Shown in pieces: positions 13,308 to 30,885 of a stretch of DNA of 64,000 nucleotides (positions are counted from its first letter, which is position 1; each line of letters opens with the position of its first letter). This DNA is from Dendrophyllia cribrosa (Eukaryota > Cnidaria > Anthozoa > Scleractinia > Dendrophylliidae). The translations under genes and the position numbers were made by a program. The notes under the pieces are model-generated. The model did no database searches. It was given only the letters and a program-made list of their open reading frames with translations, and was not told the DNA's origin. The stretch is taken from NCBI GenBank assembly GCA_024195265.1, contig JAJLRJ010000007.1, positions 9,570,828 through 9,634,827 of the forward strand, given 5' to 3'.

Positions 13308-13313
13308 TGTGAT

Positions 13314-14331
13314 AGTACATAGGAAAGAAGGGTTCTGGCACACTCCTCGGCCGCTCCTTTTTAGCACAAATAATAATTTATTTTACCTTTCCGCTACTTT
13401 TAGCACTAACTCTCAAATTGCACGCGCGCGCACCAAAATTGTTCCAAATCCACGTGTCCCGACTCTCCAGAATCGCAAAAAAACAACAAAAAAGTCTGCT
13501 CAATTTCCAGCATAACCCACTCATCTCAGCAAAAAAACAACACAAATTTCTTCCAAATTTCAGAAAAAATTCAATCAAATTCCATGTTATTCGAAAAAGT
13601 TTGACAAAATTCAATTAAATTCCATGTTGTTTGACAAAGAGGCGGCCTCGTCGTTCGCGCCAGAACCCTTCTTTCCTATCTACTGGGGATGAGGGATTAA
13701 AGGAGGGGAAAAATTCTCTCCCAAAATTCTGTCGCCGGGAAAATCTGGTGGTGGAAAAATCTCTCCCGGGAAAATCAACAGGAGAAAAGAATTCATTTCC
13801 CCCAGAAAATCAACCCACATGAAAACTGAATTTATTTCCGCAGGTTCGAAAACGAAATAGTCACATGAAAAAGAATTTGAATTTCAAATTTCGTTCTCAG
13901 GGGAGAAATATATTTGAATTTGAAATTCTTTTTCCTCCAGCTTTTTTAGGGAGAGGAAAATTTCCATCCCAATCTCAAAAAATCTTCTCACAGATTTCCT
14001 CATGCTGAGTTTTTCTATCTTCCATCTTGATCAAAGCAAAGTTTTCCGCTTTCACATCATATCCCAATCTTTTCAGCAGATGAAACAAAACAAACTGGGA
14101 GGATAGAAATTTCTTTCTCCCTCCAGCAATCAAATCATATTCAGCTGAAAATAATTTGAAATCTTCAAGCAGCTGCGTTTCTAAATGACTGATATCATCA
14201 ACATATTTTCCCGTGAGATAAAAAACCAACGCATTTTCATTTCCTTTCGCTGATTTGAGTGGAAATATCTTCAGGAAATCCACAATGTGTTTCCTCGTTA
14301 TTTCTTCTTTCCTGAAATAGCGGAGGATTTT
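13314..14331. repeat. Polinton left terminal inverted repeat (1,018 bp)
   Basis: Inverse of 29862-30879. The one mismatch I found is 13318 (C here, G at the other end). The outer 650 bp are noncoding and contain A/T-rich, purine-biased stretches; the inner part encodes the C-terminal half of the VLTF3-like gene. Confidence 0.95.
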
Positions 14332-14358
14332 CCTGGAATTGGAGGAGGAAAAATTCAT
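13975..14358 (-). pseudogene. Truncated VLTF3-like ORF in left TIR
   Basis: About 127 aa. Residues after the first ~10 are identical to the C-terminal half of the gene at 29508-30218, because the TIR ends inside that gene. The new N-terminus (MNFSSSNS) comes from unique DNA. Its ATG at 14358 overlaps the polymerase stop as ATGA, so translation by termination-reinitiation is conceivable. More likely it is a by-product of TIR extension by gene conversion. It retains the RKKFLSSQFVL segment. Confidence 0.7.
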
Positions 14359-18074: not shown

Positions 18075-18115
18075 TTTGAATGAAAAAGAAAAAAAAAATG
18101 TTTTCATTCAAAATG
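18072..18115. promoter_or_regulatory. Palindromic bidirectional start region
   Basis: A perfect 15-bp inverted repeat, CATTTTGAATGAAAA at 18072-18086 and its inverse at 18101-18115, ends in the ATG of polB on one strand and the ATG of the HTH gene on the other. An A-rich 14-bp spacer separates the arms. Both genes therefore start with TTTTCATTCAAAATG. Control of both by one symmetric site is inference. Confidence 0.75.
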
Positions 18116-18526
18116 AAGTTTTCAATCCAGGAAGAAGGAAAAGAAAAGCAAATTTTTTTCACATTCAAAGAAGCATCAGAAAAAACTGGCATTCCGAATT
18201 CCACCATTTGGAGGTTCATCAAAAACAATTCAGAAAACAAAAAGTTCACCAGAAAATCAGACAAAAAAGTTTTCTTCATTCAGGAAGAAATGACAGATGA
18301 ACCCTTTTTCCAAGTTGATGGAGAAGATATTTTTGATTATGATGAAATAGAAAAGTTTGGAATTTCAAACACAGTTTTCATCAACCAAATTCTCAGGAAG
18401 AAAAACCATTTCCTTGATTCGGAGGAAATCACTCATTACATCACATGGAAATCCCCCCAATTTGATTTCTTCATTGATAAATTGAGGGAAAATCAAAGGG
18501 ATGAAAAAATCATTCAAAAAGTTTGA
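18113..18526 (+). CDS. Small helix-turn-helix protein, putative regulator
   Basis: 137 aa from 18113; in-frame ATGs at 18080 and 18098 are alternatives. FTFKEASEKTGIPNSTIWRF near residues 18-37 reads as a helix-turn-helix with the A..TGI..STI pattern of phage and MerR-type regulators. The remainder is acidic and Phe-rich with no known domain. It is divergent from polB across a symmetric start region, which fits a regulator of early genes or of itself. It is not part of the usual Polinton core set. The HTH reading is by eye. Confidence 0.65.
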   Translation: MKFSIQEEGKEKQIFFTFKEASEKTGIPNSTIWRFIKNNSENKKFTRKSDKKVFFIQEEMTDEPFFQVDGEDIFDYDEIEKFGISNTVFINQILRKKNHFLDSEEITHYITWKSPQFDFFIDKLRENQRDEKIIQKV

Positions 18527-18594
18527 TTTTTTTTCCTCAAATGGTAAGCTATCAAAACGACAACGTTGAATTTTCATTTCCAAGAAATGAAAAA

Positions 18595-19209
18595 TCAATC
18601 CTCTTCTTCATCTACAAAGTCATCAAACGCTGAAACGTTTCCATGGAATTTTGTTACAAAACAAGAATTGATTGAGCATGTGATTGATTGGCAATTTCCA
18701 CAAAAGACGCGTGAAATGCGGAGGATGACATGTCCTGTCAGTTTTTCTCCAATGTGGTCATGGGGATCGAAACGAATGGATTTTCTTTGTCCAACTTCCC
18801 CTTCACCAAATTTCGAGAATGGGACAGAGATGTTGCCTTTTCTGTCAGTCCACAATTTACCCCAAACTTTTTCCATTTCACTTCGATCTGTTTTAATCAA
18901 GTTGAAATCGGTGGATGTGAATTTCCCAAATTTTGAGTTCAGTTTCAAAACTGCTTCTTTGTTTTCCATCGCCAACTTTCTGATTTGCGTTTCAATTTCC
19001 TGAAACTTTTCCTTGAGTTCAGGAGGAGATTGATTGAGATTGATTGCCAATGAAAATCCGTTTTCATTCCTGAAGATTTTGAAAATGCATTTCATGATTT
19101 GAACCGTGATTGGCTTCTCATTGATCCGGAGAGGAATTTCAACAAATGGATGTGCTGTGTTTTTCAGAATTGGTTCTCCCGTTTTGATTTCACTTGCTTC
19201 GACATTCAT
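18595..19209 (-). CDS. Polinton hypothetical protein, 204 aa
   Basis: Starts at ATG 19209 (MNVEASEIK); an upstream extension would need a non-ATG start. It is mixed alpha/beta by appearance, with RNENGFSLAINLNQ, a central helical region (KEKFQEIETQIRKLAMENKE), a late CGNCQSITCSINSC Cys cluster and a very acidic tail. I do not recognise a family with certainty. A nucleic-acid-binding role would fit its place beside polB and the Cys cluster, but that is a guess. It converges on the HTH gene with a 68-bp gap. Confidence 0.65.
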   Translation of the reverse strand: MNVEASEIKTGEPILKNTAHPFVEIPLRINEKPITVQIMKCIFKIFRNENGFSLAINLNQSPPELKEKFQEIETQIRKLAMENKEAVLKLNSKFGKFTSTDFNLIKTDRSEMEKVWGKLWTDRKGNISVPFSKFGEGEVGQRKSIRFDPHDHIGEKLTGHVILRISRVFCGNCQSITCSINSCFVTKFHGNVSAFDDFVDEEED

Positions 19210-19254
19210 TTTCTTTGGAGACAAAAAAAAAATAATTTTTTTTTTTATTTAAAA

Positions 19255-19671
19255 ATGGAAGCAGAAGATTTCGAAAGAATGATGGAAGACAGTGATTATA
19301 TTATAGAATTGATGAATCTCGAGTTTCTGGAGGATATTGCGATAGAAATTATTCTAGAAATTAGAGAAAGAGGTGAACACCCAGAGGACTTAATTAATAT
19401 GTTTATGGAATATGATTTTAATGGAGATGATTTTGAATACGGTGAGTTCTCAGCATCAGAAATTGTTGAACTGTTTATGGAACCCTCATCGCTTGGGAAT
19501 GTGATATGTGATCACTCAAACAACAAATCATATTTCTTCTCAAACTTCTCCAAATCCAGCCCCAAATCAATCACAATTCCATCAACCGCCTCCATTACAG
19601 GAAGGAATTCACGTCGATTAAATTTTCCTCCCCTCAAAGCGAAGCGCAAATCACTCAATGTTTTTTCATAG
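19255..19671 (+). CDS. Small acidic protein, partly antisense to the next gene
   Basis: 138 aa if read to the stop at 19671. The first ~85 residues are strongly acidic and helical (EDFERMMEDSDYIIELMN, then EFLEDIAIEIILEIRE). The last 160 nt overlap, in antisense, the 3' end of the 19512-19991 gene and lose the acidic character, so the true end may lie elsewhere. A GTGAGT at about 19442 could be a splice donor. The start TTTAAAAATGG fits the A-rich start context of the element. Function is unknown. Confidence 0.45.
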   Translation: MEAEDFERMMEDSDYIIELMNLEFLEDIAIEIILEIRERGEHPEDLINMFMEYDFNGDDFEYGEFSASEIVELFMEPSSLGNVICDHSNNKSYFFSNFSKSSPKSITIPSTASITGRNSRRLNFPPLKAKRKSLNVFS

Positions 19672-19991
19672 GTGGTAAAAGCAAACTTCGCCATGTCGAT
19701 TTTGTTTCCATATTTCTTCATTTCATTCCCTGTTTTGACGACCAATCCTGCACCTGAAATCACTCCCAAAACGATGGGATTCATTGTCACTCCCCCCGCA
19801 ATTGCGCCAATCGCAACAAGAGCGGACGACGCCAAATTCACAAACAAATTCATTCTCTTGAAATGTTTGTGAGCTCTTTTCAAACACCAAAATCTTTTGT
19901 GATAGAATCGGAAGAGTTGCTTGATCTCTTTCAGTTCTTCTTCCTCAATGTTGGGGTCAATGTGGTTGAAACTGAAGATGTCTGTTTTCAT
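19512..19991 (-). CDS. Two-transmembrane-type small protein
   Basis: 159 aa. A basic helix (FYHKRFWCLKRAHKHFKRMN) precedes two hydrophobic segments, LFVNLASSALVAIGAIAG and NPIVLGVISGAGLVV, joined by a short turn, then a charged helical C-terminus. This order recalls SLATT-type two-TM proteins, and I recall similar proteins in other cnidarian Polintons; both are impressions that need profile searches. It lies 3 bp downstream of the fibre gene on the same strand. A membrane or capsid-associated role in entry or egress is possible. Confidence 0.7.
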   Translation of the reverse strand: MKTDIFSFNHIDPNIEEEELKEIKQLFRFYHKRFWCLKRAHKHFKRMNLFVNLASSALVAIGAIAGGVTMNPIVLGVISGAGLVVKTGNEMKKYGNKIDMAKFAFTTYEKTLSDLRFALRGGKFNRREFLPVMEAVDGIVIDLGLDLEKFEKKYDLLFE

Positions 19992-19994
19992 TTT

Positions 19995-21833
19995 TTAGGC
20001 TTTTTCAAAAAGAAATGTGATTTGGGCAGCCCCGATATTTAATGATCGATCATCTATTCTTGCTGAAAATAACTCTCCTGCTTGGTAAACAACAGTTGAA
20101 AACTCGAATATTTGAATTCTATTATCACTACTAAAACGAGTTCCACTTTGTGATTTTTTATCTGGGAGATATAAAGTTAGTTGTGGAAAAGAAGCTGTTT
20201 TTGATAAAATTTGAGCAAACGCTGTGATTAATTTGCATCGGATGGGGATGACTATATCATTAAAATAATTATCGAAAAGTACATTTATGTCGTCTCCTGA
20301 TGATCTTCTATATCTTCCAATCAGCAAAAAGTTATTGCTTAAATTTGAATTGAGAATTTGATGGTCATTCAAATCCAAATCAGTTTCCATGACCATCTTC
20401 CCACTCTCAAAAACGAAAGGAGCATCATAAACAGAACTTGGCACATCTGATTGAGAACCTTTAACACCATAAATGATCAAATTTGCTGAGTCTTGAACAG
20501 CTGATGATGATGTTCCTTGCCATTTCAAATCCAGATAGACAAATTCCGGTGGAGAAATCTGCCATTTATGCATGTGAATGATTGATCGAGAATAGTTGGA
20601 AAACTTCTTCGTTGATTGTTGATTGATATTCAAGCTCGTGGAAACCACGTCAACGCTCACACCCGTCATGGAAGCGGGGAAGAATTCAATGCAAATCGTA
20701 TATTCCCCTTCTGGAAGCTTCAGCATGTTAAATCCAAGTCGCCCAGAGTATTCATTGAAAACATCTTTTGTTATTTTCAAATCATACGCCTTCTTATTGA
20801 AATGATGCGGAGAACTTGCAAAATCAGACAAACCAGTCACTGTCATATTATGTTCAGAGCTGGATTCATCCACATCCTCCATCAAATACCGGAATTCATC
20901 CTTCAAGTGGGAGGTTGAAGATATATGCGATTCATTGACATATTTTTTAAGGTCAGCTTCTGTTTTGATCAGTTCCTCTGCCAGAGCTACTGTCTTCTCA
21001 TTTAGCTGTGTATCAACATATTGTTTTGATGTTGCTTCATTGGATGTTTTTGGATCGGGAAGACCAATGATTTTCTCCGATCCCATATCAAGTTGCCCAG
21101 TCATTGTTCCACCTGACAAAGAAAGCTTATTAGCTGCCAGCCCGGAGACTGCCGTGTCCACATATTTTTTGTTGGCTGCTTGATCGATTGCTGTTGGATC
21201 TTTCACGTTATAAACAAATTGGTTTCCCATATCCAAGCTTGTTTCCATTGGGAATGTTTCTTTCCGACTGAGAAAGACATTCTTTGCATCATCGTAAGAG
21301 ATCAGATTGTTATAGTTCGCCGATAAATCAGCATAAGTTTGTTGCTTTGATTTGACAACATTGAAAAGTTCTTTTAAATCGATGTTCTTCGTCACTTCAT
21401 GAGTATGTGCTGGAGCATTTGGGTGGAACTTCTTCAAAGTGATCATATTCACCGCGGAAAGATCATTTGATTCATCAGTATCCAGATTTGTGATCAACTT
21501 TCGATCCATGTCAATCTCTCCAGGAAGAATCAGTTTCTTTCCCCTGAGGTCCAGATCTCCAGTCATATGGGAGGATCCATCAACCTGCAAAGAATCTGCT
21601 CTCAGTTGAATCAGTTTGGTTTCCACACTTCTGTCTAGCGAGTCAACTTGATGTTTTGTGACTGCATCACCATTTGCTGTTCCATCAGCGACATTGACCA
21701 GTTTTCTGTTTGACATGTCATAATCCCCTGTGGATGTCAGTTTAAAACCAACTCCTGGCAATCCATCTCTTCCATCTCGACCCCCTCGGGAAGTGCTTGT
21801 TGTTTCAGAAAGCAATCCATTTGAATAGCTCAT
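19995..21833 (-). CDS. Fibre-like protein with collagen-like stretch
   Basis: 612 aa from ATG 21833, which follows the ATPase stop by one base. A Gly-rich collagen-like stretch (GGRDGRDGLPGVG) lies near residues 18-30. Repeats of the tail-fibre type follow (MSNRKLVNVADGTANGDAVT; LDMGSEKIIGLPDPKTSNEA then TSKQYVD). The C-terminal ~230 residues look beta-rich and may form a knob. Such repeats are typical of trimeric phage fibres, so a spike or receptor-binding role is the natural inference. Co-orientation with the ATPase and adjacency to capsid genes support virion membership. Confidence 0.75.
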   Translation of the reverse strand: MSYSNGLLSETTSTSRGGRDGRDGLPGVGFKLTSTGDYDMSNRKLVNVADGTANGDAVTKHQVDSLDRSVETKLIQLRADSLQVDGSSHMTGDLDLRGKKLILPGEIDMDRKLITNLDTDESNDLSAVNMITLKKFHPNAPAHTHEVTKNIDLKELFNVVKSKQQTYADLSANYNNLISYDDAKNVFLSRKETFPMETSLDMGNQFVYNVKDPTAIDQAANKKYVDTAVSGLAANKLSLSGGTMTGQLDMGSEKIIGLPDPKTSNEATSKQYVDTQLNEKTVALAEELIKTEADLKKYVNESHISSTSHLKDEFRYLMEDVDESSSEHNMTVTGLSDFASSPHHFNKKAYDLKITKDVFNEYSGRLGFNMLKLPEGEYTICIEFFPASMTGVSVDVVSTSLNINQQSTKKFSNYSRSIIHMHKWQISPPEFVYLDLKWQGTSSSAVQDSANLIIYGVKGSQSDVPSSVYDAPFVFESGKMVMETDLDLNDHQILNSNLSNNFLLIGRYRRSSGDDINVLFDNYFNDIVIPIRCKLITAFAQILSKTASFPQLTLYLPDKKSQSGTRFSSDNRIQIFEFSTVVYQAGELFSARIDDRSLNIGAAQITFLFEKA

Positions 21834-21834
21834 T

Positions 21835-22467
21835 TTAAAGTCTTTCATCAAAGTTTTTGGCAATAAATTTCCTCGGCTTATCCACATAGAGGAAAGAGAA
21901 TGGATCATGCGTTGCTTTCAGATAATCTTCTTTGGTGATGTTATTCTCCCTGCAGATCGCCGCAATTTCTTTGTTGCTGGGGAATTCAAAGATGCAAAAA
22001 TGTGAGCAATTCAGTCGAATATCTTTTGGTGTTTGGAAATAGCTTTGTGAAAGATAGATGACAGAACAATTCTTATGCCTGCCTTGAATAAAATAATCAA
22101 CCAGGGGTTTTTGATTCTTTTCGCAAACAAAATCATCGAAAACAACCAGTTTTTGATTCTCCCCAGATAATTCAGAAACTGGGATGATTTCATCCGGGGA
22201 TGCTTCAATGATGTCATATCCAGCTTCTTTGCTGATTGGGCGAAATGTTTTCAGTAGATGTTGATATTTGGATTGGTCAAGATTTTTCGCATAGAGATAA
22301 ATTTTATCGTAGAAGAGCAGGCGGAGGATCATATCCAGAAGAACATTTGTTTTCCCCGATCCTGAAGGGCCGCAGATCAACATTCTGAAAGCTCGATCCG
22401 GCATGAAGGGATGAAGCTGCTCGAAATTTGTGATTGGGTCATGGCAATCATAATTTGGAATCTTCAT
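21835..22467 (-). CDS. A32/FtsK-HerA-type genome packaging ATPase
   Basis: 210 aa. Walker A GPSGSGKT at 33-40 and Walker B LVVFDDF at ~107-113, followed by the sensor-like SVIYLSQSYF. Length and motifs match packaging ATPases of Polintons, adintoviruses and NCLDVs, which drive DNA into preformed capsids. The ATG at 22467 is in the element's TAAAATG context. It is divergent from the PPxY protein gene and directly upstream of the fibre gene. Confidence 0.95.
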   Translation of the reverse strand: MKIPNYDCHDPITNFEQLHPFMPDRAFRMLICGPSGSGKTNVLLDMILRLLFYDKIYLYAKNLDQSKYQHLLKTFRPISKEAGYDIIEASPDEIIPVSELSGENQKLVVFDDFVCEKNQKPLVDYFIQGRHKNCSVIYLSQSYFQTPKDIRLNCSHFCIFEFPSNKEIAAICRENNITKEDYLKATHDPFSFLYVDKPRKFIAKNFDERL

Positions 22468-22535
22468 TTTATTATGTTCAACATCATGTTCTACATCTTG
22501 TTCTACATCCCAAATTTGTATTTGTGAGTAATAAA
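22468..22535. promoter_or_regulatory. Divergent promoter region with short repeats
   Basis: 68 bp between two outward ATGs. It contains three near-copies of a 12-bp unit (TGTTC(A/T)ACATC(A/T)) at about 22478-22511. Both genes start with ATAAAATG. Confidence 0.5.
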
Positions 22536-23507
22536 ATGAGTTTATTGAAATGGCAACAACTTGCAAAAAGCAAATCTGCTTTGGGTAAAAAAATCAACTT
22601 TGTTCACGATGTCATCACCCAGAAAAAGTTGGGTGAAGAGACAAGTCAAATCGGACTTGAAAAAATGTTCAAGCCAGTCACATCGAAACTGGATGAGGTG
22701 ATTGCGTCGAATTTGAGGCCACTTCCCCGGAAAAAGAAAGTGGAGGGGAAAGCCAAACCAGCAGAAATTGATTATCTCCCCGAAGTCGACCCATTTGAAG
22801 ATATGGATGTGGGTGGCTTGTTTGATGAGGCCGTTCCATCCCAAACAACGAAACAAATTCCACCAGCTCCTCCAACATATGAAGAAGTTGCGAAAGAGAT
22901 AGGGGAAGATCCACCTGAATATGAAGCCGATGAATCTCCTGATTATGCTCTGGAACCGGGTGATGAAGAGGAAGAGGAAAAAGGAGATGAAGCCAATCAG
23001 ATATTGGATAGCTTGGACCTCACGAATTATGATACTGCGGAGAAAACTCTCAGTGAACCAAATGTCTCATCAGCGAAGAAAATCCATTATCTCGATAATC
23101 TTGTGACCATTGCAAACTTCAGAAGAAATCAATTGAAAGGGTATAAATCATCTTTCACCAAAAAATTCAAGAAAGGGGAAATAACGGAAGAGCAAAAGAA
23201 TTGGCAACATCAAAGGATAGATCGTTCATTCAAAGCATTAAATGAATACATAAAGCATTACAAAAGGAAAGCGACAACATTGACAGGTTCGGGAGTTAGG
23301 AGAAAAAAAGGTGGAAATGTCCGTTTTTTCTCCAATCCCAAAGATCTTCTCCAGAAACTTGAGGTCATCATTGGCTCCATTCTTGCTGGGAATACAAACG
23401 TTGGCATCAGAAATACTGGAGTTGCAATTCTCGATCTTCTCCTGAAAGAGGGGGTCATCAATAGATCCCAGCATGAGAAGCTCTACAAAAACTATTTCAG
23501 ACCTTAA
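22536..23507 (+). CDS. Polinton virion-type protein with two PPxY motifs
   Basis: 323 aa. An N-terminal helical basic region is followed by a disordered acidic segment with PPTY (112-115) and PPEY (126-129), then an EEEEEK stretch. The helical C-terminal third (AGNTNVGIRNTGVAILDLLL) resembles proteins I recall upstream of the penton gene in other cnidarian Polintons. PPxY motifs bind Nedd4-family WW domains and act as late domains in many viruses; adenovirus protein VI has one. That use here is inference. Its stop is followed by one base and the penton ATG. Confidence 0.8.
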   Translation: MSLLKWQQLAKSKSALGKKINFVHDVITQKKLGEETSQIGLEKMFKPVTSKLDEVIASNLRPLPRKKKVEGKAKPAEIDYLPEVDPFEDMDVGGLFDEAVPSQTTKQIPPAPPTYEEVAKEIGEDPPEYEADESPDYALEPGDEEEEEKGDEANQILDSLDLTNYDTAEKTLSEPNVSSAKKIHYLDNLVTIANFRRNQLKGYKSSFTKKFKKGEITEEQKNWQHQRIDRSFKALNEYIKHYKRKATTLTGSGVRRKKGGNVRFFSNPKDLLQKLEVIIGSILAGNTNVGIRNTGVAILDLLLKEGVINRSQHEKLYKNYFRP

Positions 23508-23508
23508 A

Positions 23509-24276
23509 ATGGAAATCGAAAGAGAAATTGTTTTATCCTCCTTTTCCGTCAAGACAGGCGGCAACAAACCAGAAAATTTCACAACACAATTCTATCGGCC
23601 CATTGCTTTGGATCCAAATGAACAATATGTTGTTGGGCTTAACAGAGTCATCAATATGAGTTTTACGTGGTATAACATCAATGCTGGACGCAAGAATCAA
23701 CTGATCAGGTTCAGCTCCGACGGTGGGAAAACATTTTCCGATATCACCTTCCCAGCTGGAGTTTGGGAATATGAGGGGATGAATAACTTTATTCAAGAAG
23801 CAACAGTGGTGAAAGAAGCTGGAAAAGATGACATTTTCCCAATCAATCTTGCTTTTAATACAACAACCTTCAGAGTAACAATCACACTGGCAGAAAATTA
23901 TCAGCTTGATCTCACCCAATCCAACTTCGGCGATCTCGTTGGTTTTGAGAAAAAGATTCTGAAGGATAAAGTCAACATTGGCCCCAGAGTTCCAAACCTC
24001 AGTCAAGATACTGATATGTTAAACGTTCATTGTGATTTGACAAGTGATTCGCTTGTTGATGGAGCAGAGAGTGATATCATTTATTCCTTTTCAACATCTG
24101 TTCTGAGGCCATCATATAGTTTCACGTTGGAGCCCATGAGAGTAACATTCAACCCTGTGAATAAAAACACAATAAGCTCCATTCGAATCTATATCACCGA
24201 TGGCCGAAGGCGAGTTGTTGATTTGAATGGAGCTGATACAGCGTTCTCACTTTTATTGAAAAAGGTAATAAAATGA
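23509..24276 (+). CDS. Minor capsid (penton-like) protein
   Basis: 255 aa, beta-rich, with the layout of the Polinton single-jelly-roll minor capsid protein. Typical landmarks are FTTQFYRPIALDPNEQYVVG near the start, FGDLVGFEKKIL in the middle, LNVHCDLTSDS, and the end SIRIYITDGRRRVVDLNG. It would occupy capsid vertices. It starts directly after the PPxY gene (TAA-A-ATG) and overlaps the next gene by 4 bp (ATGA), consistent with tight viral packing. Confidence 0.88.
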   Translation: MEIEREIVLSSFSVKTGGNKPENFTTQFYRPIALDPNEQYVVGLNRVINMSFTWYNINAGRKNQLIRFSSDGGKTFSDITFPAGVWEYEGMNNFIQEATVVKEAGKDDIFPINLAFNTTTFRVTITLAENYQLDLTQSNFGDLVGFEKKILKDKVNIGPRVPNLSQDTDMLNVHCDLTSDSLVDGAESDIIYSFSTSVLRPSYSFTLEPMRVTFNPVNKNTISSIRIYITDGRRRVVDLNGADTAFSLLLKKVIK

Positions 24277-24659
24277 AATCATATGAGTTCTCTCGTTATT
24301 ATCACCCCAAATTGGGGCGGTTTGTTTATCGACACAAAGGATCTGGTGCTATTGTGGATAATATATTCCGGCCAATGAGAGCAGTGGCATCAGCCGTTTT
24401 CAAGAAATTCGCTAAACCCATTGCGAAAAAAGCATTGGAATCAGGTATTTCTCACGCTGGAGATAAACTTGGCAAAAAAGCAGCTGAAAAATCTGGTGAT
24501 CTCATAATGAAAAAACTGGGAAATATGAGAATTGGGAGCAAAAAACAACCAGCTCGACCACAATCAGCCCCTGTGTCAACCTCCGGAGAAAGTTCTGATG
24601 ATATATTGAACAGGTTGATCTCTGGGCAGGGTATCCGAAAAAGAAAAAAAAGAATATAA
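24273..24659 (+). CDS. Small basic protein between capsid genes
   Basis: 128 aa, rich in Lys/Arg, with an aromatic start (SYEFSRYYHPKLGRFVYRHK), an amphipathic Ala/Lys helix (ISHAGDKLGKKAAEKSGDLI) and a basic tail (GIRKRKKRI). Charge, size and position between penton and major capsid genes suggest a DNA-condensing or capsid-cement role, like adenovirus core proteins. No family is claimed. ATGA overlap with the penton gene. Confidence 0.75.
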   Translation: MKSYEFSRYYHPKLGRFVYRHKGSGAIVDNIFRPMRAVASAVFKKFAKPIAKKALESGISHAGDKLGKKAAEKSGDLIMKKLGNMRIGSKKQPARPQSAPVSTSGESSDDILNRLISGQGIRKRKKRI

Positions 24660-24660
24660 A

Positions 24661-25947
24661 ATGGCTTTTCGATCGAATGAATATCTTCAAAGAAATGAAT
24701 TAGTGCGCTTCCAGCTGGATGACACAATCAGAGCTCCAGCTAATGGGCAACCTCAAGACAAAGGTGGTTATAAATTCACAATTAATGACCGATCTGCATT
24801 TTACGATTGGTATAATGCTTATTTCGAGGTGCAGTTTCAACTCCAAAAACTGGCGGATGGTGCTGGGTATGCAGCAGCTGACAGGATCACAGTGATCAAT
24901 GGCGCTCATTCCCTGATTAAGCACATAAAGATTAGATCTTCAGCAAAGATTGTTTATGATACTGATAATCTGCACAAAGTCTGTTTTGCAAAGAATTTGT
25001 TAGAATACTCCGATGACTTCAGCAGATCAGTCGCCAAGAACAGTTTCTGGTATTTGGATACGACTAGAACAACAGCTGTTGGAAATGCTGGATTTGAAGC
25101 TCGCCGGTTGCAATCTCAAGCAGTTCAAGACAATGGAAATGGTGGTGCAAAGAACATCAACGTGATTATTCCTCTGAATCGTTTTTCCTTTTTCGAAGAG
25201 TTGGAAGATAAGATGCTTGTACCCATGCAGCTTCAATTTGAGATAGCCCTCAATGCTGATGGGGAACTCATTCATATGGCAAACGGCGTTGATGCTGGAA
25301 GAGTTGTTGTGAATAGGTTTTTACTTTGGGTTCCCAGATTAACACCTAAAGATTCTCTTTATGACAAATTTGTCAGCTCATTCCTGAAAGAAACACAATG
25401 GAAATATCTGAGGGAAATGTATCAGCAATCTGCTCCCTCGCAGTCATCAGGATTTTTCCAGATCTCAGCGAGCATTGACAATGTGAGGCATATTTTTGTC
25501 TGGCTGAAAAGAACCGATCCGCCCAATGATGACCGTGCAGAAGATAACCCATATCTGATGGACACTTTCAAGCTGAATGCGGCAGATAACGCCTCATCCT
25601 TGTTGAACTGTCGATTGGAATATGGAAATGGTGTTTTCTACCCGGAAACAGAGTATGACAGTGAAAGCAAAGTAAGAATATTCCAGGATGTCATGGCTTA
25701 TGCAATGCGGAAAAATGATTTTAACACTGGAACACAGCTGAATCTGACCAATTTCAATTCTCTTTTCCCATTGATTTATTTCGATCTGACTTATCAAACT
25801 GAAAAACCAACAAGAGATCCCAAGCAGTTGATATTCAGATATCGATTGAGCGCAGATGCAGCTGCAAACTTCAATGTACATGCGATAGTTCTCTATGAAG
25901 AACTGGTGAAAATTGATAAAATTGGAAATGAATTAGTCATTGTGTGA
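24661..25947 (+). CDS. Double-jelly-roll major capsid protein
   Basis: 428 aa. Polinton major capsid landmarks are visible: DWYNAYFEVQFQLQ in the first jelly roll, IKHIKIRSSAKIVYDTDNLH, IIPLNRFSFFEELEDKML at the domain junction, then NRFLLWVPRLTPKD and a second roll ending with YRLSADAAANFNVHAIVLYE. This fold builds pseudo-hexagonal capsids in adenoviruses and NCLDVs, so the element probably can or could form virions. The start follows the previous stop in ATAAAATGG. Intact. Confidence 0.93.
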   Translation: MAFRSNEYLQRNELVRFQLDDTIRAPANGQPQDKGGYKFTINDRSAFYDWYNAYFEVQFQLQKLADGAGYAAADRITVINGAHSLIKHIKIRSSAKIVYDTDNLHKVCFAKNLLEYSDDFSRSVAKNSFWYLDTTRTTAVGNAGFEARRLQSQAVQDNGNGGAKNINVIIPLNRFSFFEELEDKMLVPMQLQFEIALNADGELIHMANGVDAGRVVVNRFLLWVPRLTPKDSLYDKFVSSFLKETQWKYLREMYQQSAPSQSSGFFQISASIDNVRHIFVWLKRTDPPNDDRAEDNPYLMDTFKLNAADNASSLLNCRLEYGNGVFYPETEYDSESKVRIFQDVMAYAMRKNDFNTGTQLNLTNFNSLFPLIYFDLTYQTEKPTRDPKQLIFRYRLSADAAANFNVHAIVLYEELVKIDKIGNELVIV

Positions 25948-26005
25948 GGGCTGTGAGCGAGCGCAGCGAGCTGAGCGAAGCGAAAAACATATGTTATCAT
26001 TTAAA

Positions 26006-26831
26006 ATGACAACATATCACCCATATAAAGTAAATTTATCTGAAGGGCAAAAAAAACAAGCTTGGAAGAGCATTCCGAACAAACAATCCAGTCACCCTGA
26101 GATTGGGTGGCAATCAAACAAGCGGAAGTGATGAGCTGATGCTCACGGCAAATCAAATAAGACGGATCAACAAAGCTGCGGCTTTGGGAAAGGGAGTTGA
26201 AATCAAAATATCGAAAACGCAAATCAAAAAGGTGATGAGGCAGGGTGGAAGTTTATTTTCTGCTATTGTTCCCTTAGTGAAAACATTGGCACCCACCCTT
26301 GGTAAAACACTTGGGCTGTCAGCATTGGCTGGTTTGGCGAGTGAAGGAGCAAGTCAAGTCGTCAAAGCAATAAGTGGAAAGGGCGGCGGTCAGGTGGGTG
26401 GGTTTCTCATCCCCCAAGATAAAATTCAGAAACTGATTGACAATAAACATTTGTTGACAAATAAACAGAAACAGGACATTTTGGTTGCCCTTAAATCAGG
26501 AGGACAGTTGGTGATGAAACCATCCGCAAAACAGTCTGGTGGATTGTTGGGAACTGTGCTGGCATCCATTGGAATCCCATTGGCACTTGACATGGTTAAA
26601 AATTTGTTTGGGAATGGAGCGCCGCGCGTTGGCCGACCAAAAGGAAAAGGTGCTCCAAGATTGGGAGCGTATCCTTTCCAACCTCCCCAATTTATTGGTA
26701 ACTGGGGACGAAACCCTGTTGGGATGGGTAAAAAAAAATCAAAAAAGGGCAAAGGACTTCTGTTAGGGACGAACAGCCCATTCAACAACATCCCAATTCT
26801 GGGGCAATATTGTGAGGCCCAAATTCATTAA
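26006..26831 (+). CDS. Virion protein (MTTYHP family) broken by a frameshift in A8
   Basis: The start MTTYHPYKVNLSEGQ at 26006 matches the N-terminus I recall for a conserved cnidarian Polinton protein. Its frame closes at 26131. The rest of the family sequence (LMLTANQIRRINKAA, EIKISKTQIKKVMRQ, a Gly/Ala-rich hydrophobic region, a basic tail, GLLLGTNSPFNNIPILG) continues in the frame one base over, from about 26055 to 26831. The switch falls at AAAAAAAA (26049-26056). It could be a real one-base mutation, an assembly error, polymerase slippage, or +1/-2 recoding. A hydrophobic, basic protein preceding the protease suggests an internal capsid or membrane-lytic role, by analogy only. Confidence 0.75.
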
Positions 26832-27246
26832 CAAACCCTTGAACAATGTTGATCTGTTGAAGTGGATTGTTTTTCTGAAAATACCAAATTTCAAAGGGAT
26901 CTTCGCCAGGGATGAAGTCATACCCCAAAAACACAGCCCCTGCATCATCAATCTTGATTCACTCGAAAATGCAGGAACTCATTGGGTTTGTTGTGCTCCC
27001 GGACAGAAATTCACGTGGTATTTCGATAGTTTTGGAATGGGATTTCCCCAAGAATTCAGAAGCTCAAAACAAATACTCTGGAACACAAGTCAGTATCAAA
27101 ACATAAACAGTGTCCTTTGCGGGTATTATTGCCTTTATTTCCTCCATCAATGGTCACGCGGAAAAGATTTCTATGATATTCTCAAACCTCTCAGTCTGAC
27201 TGATACGACGCAAAATGAAAGATTCATAAAAGAATATTTCGATTGA
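26812..27246 (+). CDS. Adenain-like cysteine protease without an evident AUG
   Basis: Open frame from 26767 (after TAG at 26764) to the stop at 27246. Catalytic elements of the C5/C48 type are in order: His in GTHWVCC, acidic residue in WYFDSFG, Gln/Cys in NSVLCGYYCLYFL. This enzyme would process virion proteins. No ATG precedes the catalytic His in this frame; GTG at 26812 or ATT at 26827 are the only starts by position. It overlaps the 3' end of the MTTYHP-family gene in the +1 frame. Initiation at a near-cognate codon, recoding, splicing or loss of the start are all open. Confidence 0.85.
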   Translation: MRPKFINKPLNNVDLLKWIVFLKIPNFKGIFARDEVIPQKHSPCIINLDSLENAGTHWVCCAPGQKFTWYFDSFGMGFPQEFRSSKQILWNTSQYQNINSVLCGYYCLYFLHQWSRGKDFYDILKPLSLTDTTQNERFIKEYFD

Positions 27247-27248
27247 AA

Positions 27249-27407
27249 ATGAAGTCATATTGCGTGAAGGAGAAAAAACAAACTGAATGCACCAGTCCAT
27301 CTGGATACATGACCGCAAAAAATGGAAGAAAGATGTGGTTTTGCCATTGCGCTTCCTGTGGAATCAAAAAGACAAGATTTGTGAAGGCAAAGCCCTCGGG
27401 AAACTGA
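27249..27407 (+). CDS. Zinc-ribbon-like ORF, proposed zero frame of a frameshift cassette
   Basis: 52 aa, ATG 27249 two bases after the protease stop. It has Cys at 5 and 14 and a CHCASC knuckle, followed by KKTRFVKAKPSGN. The family I recall has CxxC in the first knuckle; here it is CxxE. It ends at TGA directly after the slippery heptamer GGGAAAC. In related elements this ribbon is, to my recollection, often fused to a downstream domain, which is what a -1 shift would produce here. Confidence 0.75.
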   Translation: MKSYCVKEKKQTECTSPSGYMTAKNGRKMWFCHCASCGIKKTRFVKAKPSGN

Positions 27408-27430
27408 GTCTGCCCTCACAAGGTGGGGGC
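27398..27430 (+). promoter_or_regulatory. -1 frameshift signal 1 (zinc ribbon to PLA2)
   Basis: G GGA AAC at 27398-27404 is in register with the zero frame (TCG GGA AAC TGA). A 7-nt spacer follows (27405-27411), then a stem of 8 pairs (27412-27419 with 27423-27430, one G-U) closed by AAG. Heptamer, register, spacer and stem all meet the classic -1 rules. No pseudoknot was found. Confidence 0.8.
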
Positions 27431-28063
27431 TTTGGTGAATTAGCATTGACTGGCGTTGCTCATGCTCTTCCCTGGCTCGGGAAAAAAACAGTTGAAATGG
27501 GCCGTTATGGAGCCAGTGAATTGTTGCGAAATAAGAACACTCAAAGGAAAGCATTGGATTTTGCCCTGGACAAGATGAAATCATTTCTTGCCAAAACCTC
27601 TTCCGATATGCTGAATCAACTGTCCACGGCGATCCGACCCAACAGAAAATATAAAACAGACCGGAAAGATTTGGATGGCGGCGGGTTGGATGTTCACAGC
27701 TTGATTGGGAAACTGCCAAGGCCAAAGAAAGGTTTCACCTTCCCAGGTCATAACTATACCGGCCCGTATAACCCATTGGATAAGCAAGTCCGATTCGATG
27801 AAAAGGGAAAGATTCTCGAAATTATGCAGCAACCCACAGGAAAAACAGACGCAGTTGCTATGCAGCACGATGTGGATTATTCAGTTTGCGCAAAACAATC
27901 AAACCCGCGTCAATGTAAAAATAAAGCAGACAGGAAAATGGTTGCCGCTTTGGATTCCATTCCCTGGAAAGAAAGACAGTGGGGTCATGCTTTGGCGAGA
28001 AATGTAATCGATGCAAAACAAAAACTTGGCCTCGGCGTTCCAAAAAACGGGAAAAGATTTTGA
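27404..28063 (+). CDS. Phospholipase A2-like domain ORF, read after -1 shift
   Basis: About 219 codons in the -1 frame. It contains GGGFGELALTGVAHALPWLG, a helical linker, then LPGH-type FPGHNYTGPYNPLD (nt ~27740-27780) and MQHDVDYSVC with the His-Asp pair at 27866-27871. The calcium-loop-like Y.GPYNPLD and HDxxY match the parvovirus VP1-type PLA2 family, whose activity breaches endosomal membranes. The role here (entry) is inference. An ATG at 27287 in this frame would encode sequence out of register with the zinc ribbon and gives no family similarity, so frameshift expression is preferred. Confidence 0.85.
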   Translation: MSLPSQGGGFGELALTGVAHALPWLGKKTVEMGRYGASELLRNKNTQRKALDFALDKMKSFLAKTSSDMLNQLSTAIRPNRKYKTDRKDLDGGGLDVHSLIGKLPRPKKGFTFPGHNYTGPYNPLDKQVRFDEKGKILEIMQQPTGKTDAVAMQHDVDYSVCAKQSNPRQCKNKADRKMVAALDSIPWKERQWGHALARNVIDAKQKLGLGVPKNGKRF

Positions 28064-28106
28064 GTGAAGGCTGGACTCAAAATCTGGCAAATGAACTTCA
28101 CCAGCC
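28042..28106 (+). promoter_or_regulatory. -1 frameshift signal 2 with H-type pseudoknot (PLA2 to integrase)
   Basis: A AAA AAC at 28042-28048 is in register with the PLA2 frame (CCA AAA AAC GGG). Spacer 28049-28054 (6 nt). Stem 1 has 11 perfect pairs, 28055-28065 with 28075-28085. Loop 1 is 28066-28068. Stem 2 has 6 pairs, 28069-28074 with 28101-28106 (GGCTGG/CCAGCC). Loop 3 is 15 nt. The stems abut with no unpaired base. The PLA2 stop (28061-28063) lies within stem 1. The dimensions equal those of the coronavirus IBV signal as I recall it. Confidence 0.92.
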
Positions 28107-29010
28107 AATCAGGAGACGCTTCCCAAAACGAAAAGTCATTTCATATGGCGTTGACAACATTTGGGCGGCTGATCTGGTCGAGGTGGGGAAATATTCGAAG
28201 TGGAACAAAGGGATCAAATATCTCCTGATGGTGATCGATGTCTTCTCAAAGTTCGGTTGGATTCGCCCCCTGAAAGACAAGAGAGGACAAACAGTGGCCG
28301 ATGCTTTCCAATCTATATTCAGGGAGCGAAAACCGAAGATGCTTTGGACTGATAAAGGAAGTGAATTTTTCAATAGAATAATGAAGGATCTCCTGAATAA
28401 GAATGGGATAAAATTGTATACCACAGAGAATGAAGAGAAATCGTCTGTGGTTGAACGTTGGAACAAGACAATGAAGGAACGACTCTTCCGGATGTTTTCT
28501 GCTAACAATAATACGGTGTTTTTTGACAAACTAGATGAGTTAGTGGATCAATATAATCACCGTTTTCATTCGAGCATTCGGATGACCCCAGCGCAGGCCA
28601 GCGAACGGAAAAATGAGAAAAAGGTTTTCGCTAATTTATACGGAGATTTACTTTATGCAAAACACAACCCAGCAAAATTCAAGATCGGCGATAAAGTCCG
28701 AATTTCAAAATACAAACGAAAGATATTCGACAAAGGTTTCACCCCGAACTGGACCGAAGAGATATTTGTCGTTGATGAGGTTTTAAACACAAATCCTCCG
28801 ACGTATAAATTAGTCGATCTGTTGGGAGAAAAAATAACTGGATCATTTTACGAGGCGGAAGTTCAAAGGACAACGCAAGATATTTTTCGCATTGAAAAGG
28901 TTCTTCGCCGGGACCAGAAGAAAAAGAAAGCCTTGGTTAAATGGAAAGGATATCCCGATAAATTCAATTCTTGGGTTCCGCTGAGTGATGTGGAAAAGCT
29001 TGGTGTCTAA
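28048..29010 (+). CDS. int: Retroviral-type integrase with chromodomain
   Basis: About 320 codons after the proposed shift. rve core: first Asp in WAADLVEV (28171), second in WTDKGSEF (28351, 60 residues on), Glu in SSVVERWNKTM (28453, 34 residues on). A C-terminal chromodomain (KKALVKWKGYPDKFNSWVPL) ends the protein. The first in-frame AUG is in KYLLMVID, after the first catalytic Asp, so an independent AUG start would yield an inactive enzyme. That supports expression as a -1 fusion with the PLA2 ORF. The enzyme inserts the element and makes the 6-bp duplication. The stop overlaps the first palindrome of the adjacent array. Confidence 0.93.
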   Translation, partial: REKILSEGWTQNLANELHQPIRRRFPKRKVISYGVDNIWAADLVEVGKYSKWNKGIKYLLMVIDVFSKFGWIRPLKDKRGQTVADAFQSIFRERKPKMLWTDKGSEFFNRIMKDLLNKNGIKLYTTENEEKSSVVERWNKTMKERLFRMFSANNNTVFFDKLDELVDQYNHRFHSSIRMTPAQASERKNEKKVFANLYGDLLYAKHNPAKFKIGDKVRISKYKRKIFDKGFTPNWTEEIFVVDEVLNTNPPTYKLVDLLGEKITGSFYEAEVQRTTQDIFRIEKVLRRDQKKKKALVKWKGYPDKFNSWVPLSDVEKLGV

Positions 29011-29166
29011 CGCGTTAGACAAAATTGATCCAATTTCTTCCCCAAAAACTGTCTAACGCGTTAGACAAAATTGATCCAATTTCTTCCCCAAAAACTGTCT
29101 AACGCGTTAGACACCAAAATGAAATATTCCAATTTCTCCCCCAAAAAACTGTCTAACGCGTTAGAC
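29005..29166. repeat. Four 16-bp palindromes GTCTAACGCGTTAGAC
   Basis: Perfect palindromes at 29005-29020, 29051-29066, 29097-29112 and 29151-29166, spaced 46, 46 and 54 bp. The spacers share AAAATTGATCCAATTTCTTC (first two) and CCCCAAAAACT. They lie between the integrase stop and the genes near the right end. They look like operator or iteron sites for a dimeric protein; the element's HTH protein is a candidate. Confidence 0.85.
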
Positions 29167-29248
29167 ACAATGCCGAAATGGCATTTTTTTTGATTGGCCG
29201 CCATATGTCAATAACGCGCGTCAGAATATGAATGTTTGTCATTCATAT

Positions 29249-29488
29249 TCATTGGGATACACCGCTTTCTTTCAGTTTCCACCAGAGGATTTCATTTTGC
29301 TTTTTGAGAATCTTGTTTTCCTTTCTGAGCTTTTCATTTTCCTCAATGAGTTCTTCCATTGAGTCTGCTTCTTCTTCCTCTGTATCTGAGACAATGAATT
29401 CCTCGTCAGATGTTGTTGGAGTTTCATCTTCGCTCATTGATTCATCCTCTGAGCAGGTGAGGTCGCTTCGCTCGCTTTCATCATCCAT
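29249..29488 (-). CDS. Acidic coiled-coil protein, bZIP-like
   Basis: 79 aa. The first ~45 residues are Asp/Glu/Ser-rich (SEDESMSEDETPTTSDEEF). They are followed by a leucine-heptad helix, LIEENEKLRKENKILKKQNE, ending WWKLKESG. A long basic DNA-contact region is lacking, so it is a dimerising acidic protein rather than a full bZIP factor; a transactivator-like role is a guess. It is divergent from the VLTF3-like gene with a 19-bp gap. Its start context is TCAAAATGG, as for polB and the HTH gene. Confidence 0.65.
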   Translation of the reverse strand: MDDESERSDLTCSEDESMSEDETPTTSDEEFIVSDTEEEEADSMEELIEENEKLRKENKILKKQNEILWWKLKESGVSQ

Positions 29489-29507
29489 TTTGAGTTACAA
29501 GATTAAA

Positions 29508-30218
29508 ATGTTTAATAGATATCACTCCCTCGTGGAAAAACTGGGTGAGGATGACCGATTTATTCTGTTTTCTCTCCTAGGTGATGTGATGGAAAGATTT
29601 AGGGAGCAAAGCGAAGGAGATCTTGAAAATGAATTCAATGAGAGAGCAAAACCATTTCTCATTTCAACTGGAATGTGGGAACCACCTGAAGATGAAGCGG
29701 AGCGAAGCGAAGAGGATAAAATTCAGCTTGAGACTTTCTCAACAACAAATTCAATTAAAAATTCATATTGTCGAATCTCTCATTTAGCTGATTGCATGAA
29801 AAAATATCAGGGGAAAAACAAAATAAATATGAAGCAAGATGGGCTTGAAAAATGGATTGCTAAAATCCTCCGCTATTTCAGGAAAGAAGAAATAACGAGG
29901 AAACACATTGTGGATTTCCTGAAGATATTTCCACTCAAATCAGCGAAAGGAAATGAAAATGCGTTGGTTTTTTATCTCACGGGAAAATATGTTGATGATA
30001 TCAGTCATTTAGAAACGCAGCTGCTTGAAGATTTCAAATTATTTTCAGCTGAATATGATTTGATTGCTGGAGGGAGAAAGAAATTTCTATCCTCCCAGTT
30101 TGTTTTGTTTCATCTGCTGAAAAGATTGGGATATGATGTGAAAGCGGAAAACTTTGCTTTGATCAAGATGGAAGATAGAAAAACTCAGCATGAGGAAATC
30201 TGTGAGAAGATTTTTTGA
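29508..30218 (+). CDS. VLTF3-like putative late transcription factor
   Basis: 236 aa from ATG 29508 (GATTAAAATG); an upstream in-frame extension to 29232 is antisense to the acidic protein and unlikely. The C-terminal half (RYFRKEEITRKHIVDFLK, LETQLLEDFKLFSAEYDLI, GRKKFLSSQFVLFHLLKRLG, QHEEICEKIF) resembles the VLTF3-like domain of poxviruses, NCLDVs and Polintons. I am only moderately sure of this. In poxviruses VLTF3 directs late transcription. The right TIR begins inside the gene at 29862. Confidence 0.65.
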   Translation: MFNRYHSLVEKLGEDDRFILFSLLGDVMERFREQSEGDLENEFNERAKPFLISTGMWEPPEDEAERSEEDKIQLETFSTTNSIKNSYCRISHLADCMKKYQGKNKINMKQDGLEKWIAKILRYFRKEEITRKHIVDFLKIFPLKSAKGNENALVFYLTGKYVDDISHLETQLLEDFKLFSAEYDLIAGGRKKFLSSQFVLFHLLKRLGYDVKAENFALIKMEDRKTQHEEICEKIF

Positions 30219-30879
30219 GATTGGGATGGAAATTTTCCTCTCCCTAAAAAAGCTGGAGGAAAAAGAATTTCAAATTCAAATATATTTCTCCCCTGAGAAC
30301 GAAATTTGAAATTCAAATTCTTTTTCATGTGACTATTTCGTTTTCGAACCTGCGGAAATAAATTCAGTTTTCATGTGGGTTGATTTTCTGGGGGAAATGA
30401 ATTCTTTTCTCCTGTTGATTTTCCCGGGAGAGATTTTTCCACCACCAGATTTTCCCGGCGACAGAATTTTGGGAGAGAATTTTTCCCCTCCTTTAATCCC
30501 TCATCCCCAGTAGATAGGAAAGAAGGGTTCTGGCGCGAACGACGAGGCCGCCTCTTTGTCAAACAACATGGAATTTAATTGAATTTTGTCAAACTTTTTC
30601 GAATAACATGGAATTTGATTGAATTTTTTCTGAAATTTGGAAGAAATTTGTGTTGTTTTTTTGCTGAGATGAGTGGGTTATGCTGGAAATTGAGCAGACT
30701 TTTTTGTTGTTTTTTTGCGATTCTGGAGAGTCGGGACACGTGGATTTGGAACAATTTTGGTGCGCGCGCGTGCAATTTGAGAGTTAGTGCTAAAAGTAGC
30801 GGAAAGGTAAAATAAATTATTATTTGTGCTAAAAAGGAGCGGCCGAGGAGTGTGCCAGAACCCTTCTTTCCTATCTACT
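29862..30879. repeat. Polinton right terminal inverted repeat (1,018 bp)
   Basis: Inverse of 13314-14331. It contains the C-terminal half of the VLTF3-like gene and ~660 bp of noncoding end sequence. TGTGAT follows at 30880-30885. Confidence 0.95.
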
Positions 30880-30885
30880 TGTGAT

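What the first reader, a model, noticed from the sequence alone, without database searches (positions are those of the whole stretch)
27249..29010. Two stacked -1 frameshift sites chain zinc ribbon, PLA2 and integrase in a Polinton
Three ORFs lie in frames 0, -1 and -2 of the first. Each junction carries an in-register slippery heptamer (GGGAAAC; AAAAAAC) with correct spacing and a downstream structure. The integrase has no AUG before its first catalytic Asp. This would express integrase as a low-level double-frameshift fusion, as betaretroviruses do with gag-pro-pol. I know of no description of such a cascade in Polintons.
Basis: partly seen in the sequence, partly recalled or inferred. Interest (0 to 1): 0.95.

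Follow-up and report, generated by a model that had tools for sequence, protein, structure and literature searches.

The report
Polinton with two chained ribosomal frameshifts
A virus-like transposon carries two conserved slippery signals, each followed by a predicted RNA fold, that would make ribosomes slip back one base twice in a row, so that its integrase is likely made only as the rare tail of a zinc-ribbon and lipase protein, as some retroviruses make their enzymes.

Summary
Confirmed and extended. The window holds a 17.6-kb Polinton (13314-30879; near-identical 1,018-nt terminal inverted repeats, 6-bp target duplication). Its zinc-ribbon (DUF5679), PLA2 and integrase frames are offset -1 and -1, with G GGA AAC at 27398-27404 and A AAA AAC at 28042-28048, both in register. 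I compared 84 copies (21 clusters at 90% nt) from the same genome. The offset is -1 in 69 of 84 (junction 1) and 71 of 84 (junction 2). Of those, junction 1 holds GGGAAAC, TTTAAAC or TTTAAAA right before the stop in 56 of 69, over a hairpin whose arms covary; junction 2 holds AAAAAAC in 70 of 71, followed by a predicted pseudoknot in 63 of 70. Integrase has no AUG before its first catalytic Asp in 69 of those 70 (one has lost the Asp). Relatives encode the same three domains colinearly in one open frame, which supports the fused product. An adenain-type cleavage motif precedes PLA2, hinting at a Gag-Pol-like virion polyprotein. Frameshifting itself is unmeasured; four clusters lack the pseudoknot, and single-frame copies exist. 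Tandem -1 shifts are known in beta- and deltaretroviruses; my paper searches found none for this cassette.

The parts
13314..14331 (.). left terminal inverted repeat of the Polinton
   Evidence: paired with 29862-30879, 1018 nt, reported 100% complementary
29862..30879 (.). right terminal inverted repeat
   Evidence: flanking 6-bp target duplication TGTGAT at 13308-13313 and 30880-30885 read
27249..27407 (+). ORF1, zero frame: DUF5679 zinc ribbon, own AUG, stop TGA 27405-27407
27398..27404 (+). slippery heptamer 1, G GGA AAC, in ORF1 register, directly before the stop
27412..27430 (+). hairpin 1: arms 27412-27419 and 27423-27430, 7 nt after heptamer 1
   Evidence: 7 of 7 scored pairs in 78 of 82 copies
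27287..28063 (+). ORF2, -1 frame: PLA2 domain; predicted to be entered at heptamer 1
   Evidence: codon-position pattern of selection between heptamer 1 and first AUG
27671..27685 (+). adenain-type cleavage motif LDGG|G in the PLA2 frame, before the PLA2 domain (motif pattern recalled)
   Evidence: such a motif in the 45 residues before PGHxYTGP in 58 of 68 own-genome copies and 139 of 168 other proteins that could be scored, 1 of 877 background windows
28042..28048 (+). slippery heptamer 2, A AAA AAC, in ORF2 register
28055..28085 (+). predicted pseudoknot stem 1: arms 28055-28065 and 28075-28085, 6 nt after heptamer 2
28069..28106 (+). predicted pseudoknot stem 2: loop 28069-28074 (GGCTGG) with 28101-28106 (CCAGCC)
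28042..29010 (+). ORF3, second -1 frame: rve integrase with chromodomain, counted from heptamer 2; no AUG before the first catalytic Asp (28171)

Best explanation
The cassette is three overlapping frames (zinc ribbon, PLA2, integrase) whose two junctions carry conserved in-register slippery heptamers with predicted downstream RNA structures, and it is predicted to be translated by two successive -1 ribosomal frameshifts into zinc ribbon, zinc ribbon-PLA2 and a rare zinc ribbon-PLA2-integrase. Shown by sequence: frames, heptamers, spacing, absence of an early integrase AUG, selection on both downstream frames, and covariation of the stems. Inferred: the first shift occurs at G GGA AAC next to the stop with a hairpin as stimulator, and the second at A AAA AAC with an H-type pseudoknot. 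Integrase then is made at the product of two shift rates. The adenain-type protease of the element likely cuts just before the PLA2 domain, leaving PLA2-integrase joined. Most likely purpose (inferred): to put a few integrase molecules into the particle, joined to the PLA2 entry protein, as Gag-Pro-Pol does in betaretroviruses.
For: 84 distinct copies, 21 clusters. Offset -1 in 69 of 84 (junction 1) and 71 of 84 (junction 2). Junction 1: in the 69, GGGAAAC 45, TTTAAAC 6, TTTAAAA 5 directly before the stop. Junction 2: AAAAAAC in 70 of 71. Both heptamers in one copy in 15 of 21 clusters, 47 of 84 copies. First integrase AUG is 47-62 codons after heptamer 2 in 70 of 70; it lies after the first catalytic Asp in 69, and the other (L064) has lost that Asp. 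Between heptamer and first AUG, third codon positions carry 56% of differences (PLA2 frame, 206 pairs) and 50% (integrase frame, 996 pairs); single-change codons are synonymous/nonsynonymous 1160/488 and 8611/3714. Hairpin 1: 7 of 7 pairs in 78 of 82 copies, five distinct fully paired arm sets; over the 8 distinct arm sets 0 of 5000 re-dealings reach the observed pairing. Pseudoknot 2: 63 of 70 copies, 14 of 18 clusters, stem 2 as GGCTGG/CCAGCC, GATTGG/CCAATC and GTGATTGG/CCAATCAC, and GACTGG/CCAGTC in L031, a copy with a shifted frame outside the 70 (read): against GATTGG/CCAATC a compensatory change. Synonymous recoding gives a knot in 0-2.7% of 300 trials in the 12 of 17 representatives that have one. 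Relatives carry the same product in one frame: 18 of 188 listed proteins hold all three domains, 46 PLA2-integrase. Of 112 scored PLA2-only proteins of other genomes, 90 have Lys-Asn, as AAA AAC would give, inside the tail behind LGLG and 20 others read LGLGLN (background of Lys-Asn 14%). [quoted passage not shown]
Against: No transcript, peptide or reporter datum. Counts are of related copies, not independent events. 15 of 84 copies have another offset at junction 1 and 13 of 84 at junction 2. 13 of 82 copies have a non-canonical ATTAAAC or ATCAAAC at the junction-1 stop; 9 of the 69 hold only A AAA AAA further upstream and 4 hold no canonical heptamer at the stop. 7 of 70 copies, four whole clusters among them, show no pseudoknot at junction 2; one of the 63 (L015) has only a different stem 2, and in the second group stem 1 starts 9-10 nt after the heptamer. 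Plain folding energy at junction 2 is not significant. Hairpin 1 is not significant against synonymous recoding in 3 of 18 cluster representatives, that of the window's cluster among them (0.12). In 14 of 56 copies an AUG lies 8 codons after heptamer 1, so PLA2 could start there. Single-frame copies exist in this genome and elsewhere, so a low integrase dose is not essential to all relatives.
Confidence: 0.88

Rival explanations
1. PLA2 and integrase are made by re-initiation or internal initiation after the zinc-ribbon stop, and the heptamers are by-products of A-rich coding.
For: AUG 8 codons after heptamer 1 in 14 of 56 copies (at the hairpin loop), and 33 codons after it in 28 of 56. The window copy has a PLA2-frame AUG at 27287.
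Against: The stretch before the first AUG is under protein-type selection in both frames. Integrase has no AUG before its catalytic Asp in 69 of 70, the other having lost that Asp. In 41 of 56 copies the PLA2 frame opens only 36 nt or less before heptamer 1. Three heptamer types occupy the same place before the stop.
Confidence: 0.07
2. Splicing joins the frames; the DNA offsets are intron artefacts.
For: Transposon genes can carry introns (general knowledge); no transcript was available here.
Against: Single-frame relatives run across both junctions without a gap, so an intron would have to remove conserved coding sequence. It would not explain heptamers, spacing or covarying stems.
Confidence: 0.03
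3. The offsets are decay: an ancestral single frame broke in a master copy and spread as dead sequence.
For: Single-frame relatives exist. Some copies have other offsets: 15 of 84 at junction 1 and 13 of 84 at junction 2.
Against: The -1/-1 offset and slippery class hold in diverged clusters. Downstream frames stay under selection. The stems covary.
Confidence: 0.02

Closest known systems
Gag-Pro-Pol of betaretroviruses and deltaretroviruses (MMTV, MPMV, JSRV, HTLV)
   Same: Two chained -1 shifts. At gag-pro, GGGAAAC (MPMV, JSRV) and AAAAAAC (MMTV, HTLV) with spacers of 6-7 nt and pseudoknots, compact in the betaretroviruses (PMC3835772, passages and table). The last product holds the integrase (recalled).
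   Different: A dsDNA Polinton, no reverse transcriptase found; first frame is a zinc ribbon, middle one a PLA2; the protease is a separate adenain-like gene upstream. Here the hairpin is at the first site and the pseudoknot at the second.
Adintoviruses / Polintons (Mavericks)
   Same: PolB, A32-type ATPase, adenain-like protease, rve integrase with chromodomain, PLA2 gene, terminal inverted repeats, 6-bp target duplication.
   Different: I saw no described double frameshift for them. One preprint suggests, from KnotInFrame, a -1 site near the end of some adintovirus penton genes and possible hexon-adenain fusions (PMC11071296, passages): other genes, not this cassette.
Single-frame zinc ribbon-PLA2-integrase proteins of related elements
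   Same: Same three domains, same order, colinear over both junctions.
   Different: One continuous frame, so no shift is needed.

Membership tests
-1 programmed ribosomal frameshift signal | X XXY YYZ heptamer in the upstream register, downstream frame -1 | tested here: met
   junction 1 in 56 of 69 directly before the stop, junction 2 in 70 of 71 copies with the -1 offset
-1 programmed ribosomal frameshift signal | stimulatory structure about 5-9 nt downstream | tested here: met
   predicted, not probed: junction 1 spacer 6-7 nt; junction 2 spacer 6-7 nt in the window's group, 9-10 nt to stem 1 in the second group; 7 of 70 without
-1 programmed ribosomal frameshift signal | conservation beyond protein coding | tested here: met
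   covariation and synonymous recoding; 3 of 18 hairpin representatives above 0.05, 5 of 17 junction-2 representatives without a knot
-1 programmed ribosomal frameshift signal | measured shift in translation | not testable with these tools
   needs reporter, profiling or peptides
Polinton / Maverick / adintovirus | type B DNA polymerase, rve integrase, A32/FtsK ATPase, adenain-like protease | tested here: met
   DNA_pol_B_2 5e-24, rve 2.1e-12, Pox_A32 7e-15, Peptidase_C5 8e-4 (19.6 bits, under the cut-off 21.3)
Polinton / Maverick / adintovirus | terminal inverted repeats and 6-bp target duplication | tested here: met
[quoted passage not shown]
   24661-25947 has no Pfam or PDB sequence match; fold not predicted
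Betaretrovirus | reverse transcriptase, gag, LTRs | tested here: not met
   no reverse transcriptase or gag among the 17 window ORFs given to Pfam; the ends are inverted, not direct, repeats. It works like one and is not a member

The most novel reading that the evidence does not exclude
These Polintons have converged on a retrovirus-like Gag-Pro-Pol strategy: two nested -1 shifts grade the dose of zinc ribbon, PLA2 and integrase, the adenain-type protease matures the product inside the particle, and integrase is carried in as a PLA2 fusion. A third -1 shift may feed the protease itself from the pVI-like gene, and relatives switch repeatedly between shifted and single-frame forms of one virion polyprotein.
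Probability: 0.45. Interest if true: 0.95.

Novelty: new variant of a known kind. Interest (0 to 1): 0.88.

Why it matters
It would be a tandem frameshift cascade in a eukaryotic dsDNA element, evolved apart from retroviruses but with the same heptamers and the same enzyme at the end. It would explain how Polinton integrase is made without a start codon, and it points to integrase being a virion component, which bears on whether Polintons form infectious particles. Gene callers would start such integrases at a false TTG or miss them, so annotations of many elements would change. Related single-frame and shifted forms give a natural series for studying how recoding arises and is lost.

Tried and rejected
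Relatives in IMG/VR and in prokaryote genomes: none confirmed. A family search for PLA2 in the own genome did not complete, as other queries gave enough copies. Transcriptional slippage: thought unlikely for GGGAAAC and TTTAAAC (reasoning only). Plain folding of junction 2 was not significant; that program does not see pseudoknots, so an explicit search replaced it. A first arm-matching for hairpin 1 mixed registers and was redone with an anchor. A third heptamer for the pVI-like to protease junction: offset -1 in 18 of 20 copies, but no conserved heptamer, so not claimed. Printed descriptions: searches (listings) and passages of PMC11071296, PMC10120064, PMC9683012, PMC11071308, PMC8097293 and PMC3671162 showed none for a zinc ribbon-PLA2 or PLA2-integrase shift; the original adintovirus paper is not held.

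Full report
WHAT IS THERE. The window is part of a 627-Mb genome in 22 contigs, unnamed. A Polinton lies at 13314-30879, with inverted repeats of 1,018 nt that are reported as 100% complementary (I see one mismatch near the tips) and a 6-bp target duplication TGTGAT on both sides (read). Genes by Pfam: PolB 14355-18107 (-), A32-type ATPase 21835-22566 (-), adenain-like protease 26812-27246 (+, under the cut-off), DUF5679 27249-27407, PLA2 27287-28063, integrase with chromodomain up to 29010, VLTF3-like 29232-30218. The ORF at 24661-25947 stands where I would expect the major capsid gene, but no search identified it.

THE TWO JUNCTIONS. ORF1 ends ...TCG GGA AAC TGA; the heptamer G GGA AAC (27398-27404) abuts the stop. 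ORF2 is -1 to ORF1 and ends ...CCA AAA AAC GGG AAA AGA TTT TGA; A AAA AAC is at 28042-28048. ORF3 is -1 to ORF2. The first AUG of the integrase frame, 28228, lies past the first catalytic Asp codon at 28171.

COPIES. A protein search of the own genome scored 125 integrase places of 3022 candidates, at 87-100% identity, and a family search 150 DUF5679 places of 935 candidates; both are lower bounds. I took 60 places from the DUF5679 list and 20 from the integrase list, the latter partly for odd frame lengths, plus the eight loci and the window: 89 records. One lacked a part and four were repeats, leaving 84 places in 21 clusters at 90% nucleotide identity. Against the window, the most divergent copies have about 34-50% identity in the best PLA2 match and about 49-57% in integrase.

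FRAMES AND HEPTAMERS. Junction 1 has the -1 offset in 69 of 84 (+1 in 10, 0 in 5); junction 2 in 71 of 84 (0 in 9, +1 in 4). Of the 69, 56 hold a canonical heptamer directly before the stop: GGGAAAC 45, TTTAAAC 6, TTTAAAA 5; 9 hold only AAAAAAA 13 nt before the stop; 4 have none at the stop in use. Of the 71, 70 hold AAAAAAC. Without regard to offset, 82 of 84 copies have one of these heptamers or ATTAAAC/ATCAAAC (13 of the 82) abutting a stop. In 24 of 56 copies the PLA2 frame is closed by a stop 0-6 nt before the heptamer, so it opens just there; for integrase 46 of 70 open 30 nt or less before the heptamer. Clusters with both heptamers in one copy: 15 of 21. Of the nine copies with offset 0 at junction 2, four have a longer A run, as expected of DNA-level slippage there.

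NO EARLY AUG. In the integrase frame the first AUG comes 47-62 codons after heptamer 2 in 70 of 70 copies. The first catalytic Asp was located by pattern in 67, always before the AUG; of the other three, two show the Asp before the AUG by eye and L064 has lost it. In the PLA2 frame the first AUG comes 33 codons after heptamer 1 in 28 of 56 copies, but 8 codons after it in 14 and 3 in 2, so at junction 1 this argument is weaker.

SELECTION. Between heptamer 1 and the first AUG of the PLA2 frame, differences by codon position are 29/15/56% (25 distinct sequences, 206 pairs; copies with 20 or more codons there); between heptamer 2 and the first AUG of integrase 32/18/50% (48 distinct, 996 pairs); the PLA2 core as control gives 22/17/62%. 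This is the pattern of frames translated from the junctions on, not from the first AUG. Pairs are not independent, so no p value is given.

STRUCTURES. Hairpin 1 begins 6 or 7 nt after the heptamer. Arms GCCCTCA/TGGGGGC (42 copies), GCCAGTC/GGCTGGC (28), GCCCGTC/GGCGGGC (4), GCCCCCA/TGGGGGC (2) and GCCCGTA/TACGGGC (2) are all fully paired: 78 of 82; the other 4 have 6 of 7. Several pairs change on both sides. Against synonymous recoding of the PLA2 frame 15 of 18 cluster representatives fold better than 95% of trials; that of the window's cluster (0.12) and two others do not. At junction 2 an explicit search found an H-type pseudoknot in 63 of 70 copies and 14 of 18 clusters: AGATTTTGAGT/ACTCAAAATCT with GGCTGG/CCAGCC in the window's group, GTTGAGT/GCTCAAC with TGATTGG/CCAATCA in the second group, GTTGAGT/ACTCAAC with GTGATTGG/CCAATCAC in L032; L015 has only a different stem 2. 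L031, which has a shifted frame at this junction and is outside the 70, reads GACTGG/CCAGTC (read), a compensatory change against the second group; the window's group pairs 4 nt further upstream. In the second group stem 1 starts 9-10 nt after the heptamer, longer than usual. Seven copies, most of them from the clusters L009, L024, L037 and L048, have none. Of 300 synonymous recodings each, 0-2.7% had any such knot in the 12 of 17 representatives that have one. Plain folding energy was not significant there.

RELATIVES ELSEWHERE. The protein database holds 5585 relatives of the integrase (120 listed). Of 188 listed proteins from two searches, 124 hold only integrase, 46 PLA2-integrase and 18 zinc ribbon-PLA2-integrase in one frame. 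Of the 124, 99 start exactly 11 residues before the ELHxP motif, just behind where heptamer 2 lies in the window: the mark of a caller using the first TTG after the junction (inference). Single-frame proteins run ...LGLGVKKRQKPSSEENWQKELADELHKP..., colinear with the window's ...LGLGVPK then KREKILSEGWTQNLANELHQP. The named ones among the listed hits come from Stylophora pistillata and Oculina patagonica. Of 120 listed PLA2-only proteins, 112 could be scored: 90 have Lys-Asn inside the tail behind LGLG, 20 others read LGLGLN, 2 have neither; Lys-Asn occurs in 14% of background stretches. LGLGLN could be T TTA AAC, which is speculative without DNA. A tree of 189 integrases places the window genome's clusters in several places, next to integrase-only and to single-frame relatives (four short representatives left out), so the two modes seem to interchange. 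The own genome also holds single-frame PLA2-integrase copies: by my reading at least 10 of the 90 rows without internal stops, 7 of which are in my set.

PROCESSING. The adenain consensus (M/I/L)xGG-x or (M/I/L)xGx-G (recalled) occurs in the 45 residues before the PLA2 motif PGHxYTGP in 58 of 68 own copies and 139 of 168 other proteins that could be scored, and in 1 of 877 windows further downstream. This suggests that the element's protease cuts the product just before PLA2, while PLA2 and integrase stay joined. It is the main reason to think of a virion polyprotein; it is not a test.

KNOWN WORK. Two chained -1 shifts are described for beta- and deltaretroviruses, with GGGAAAC or AAAAAAC at gag-pro and spacers of 6-8 nt (PMC3835772, passages and table; PMC5009743, passages). 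For adintoviruses one preprint mentions predicted -1 sites in penton genes and possible hexon-adenain fusions (PMC11071296, passages). Searches brought nothing on this cassette in the listings and passages seen; most subscription papers are not in that library.

VERDICT. What remains is measurement.

Noticed in passing
window 26103-26831 and 26812-27246; L090-L108: The protease frame is -1 to the pVI-like frame in 18 of 20 copies scored; in the window, L091, L104 and L106 the first AUG lies after the catalytic His. No conserved heptamer. A third recoding site is possible.
   Followed up: partly
window 25940-26831: In the window copy the pVI-like gene is split over two frames and its offset to the protease differs from most relatives, so this copy is probably not intact although its cassette is.
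   Followed up: partly
window 29004-29171: 3.5 copies of a 46-bp direct repeat right behind the integrase stop, with the palindrome TGTCTAACGCGTTAGACA.
   Followed up: no
window 13314-30879: The terminal inverted repeats are all but identical, so the insertion looks young; over 100 related integrase copies were scored in the genome.
   Followed up: partly
G000:C1:37489963, 37499771, 37509577: Three integrase copies of equal score stand about 9.8 kb apart in a row, perhaps a tandem array.
   Followed up: no
proteins P0204, P0220, P0264 and others: PLA2-only proteins of other genomes end LGLGLN, as T TTA AAC plus stop would give: perhaps a second heptamer type at junction 2.
   Followed up: no
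window 19995-21908 (-): 637-aa ORF with weak coiled-stalk (YadA) and T7 tail-fibre matches next to the ATPase: a possible fibre protein.
   Followed up: no
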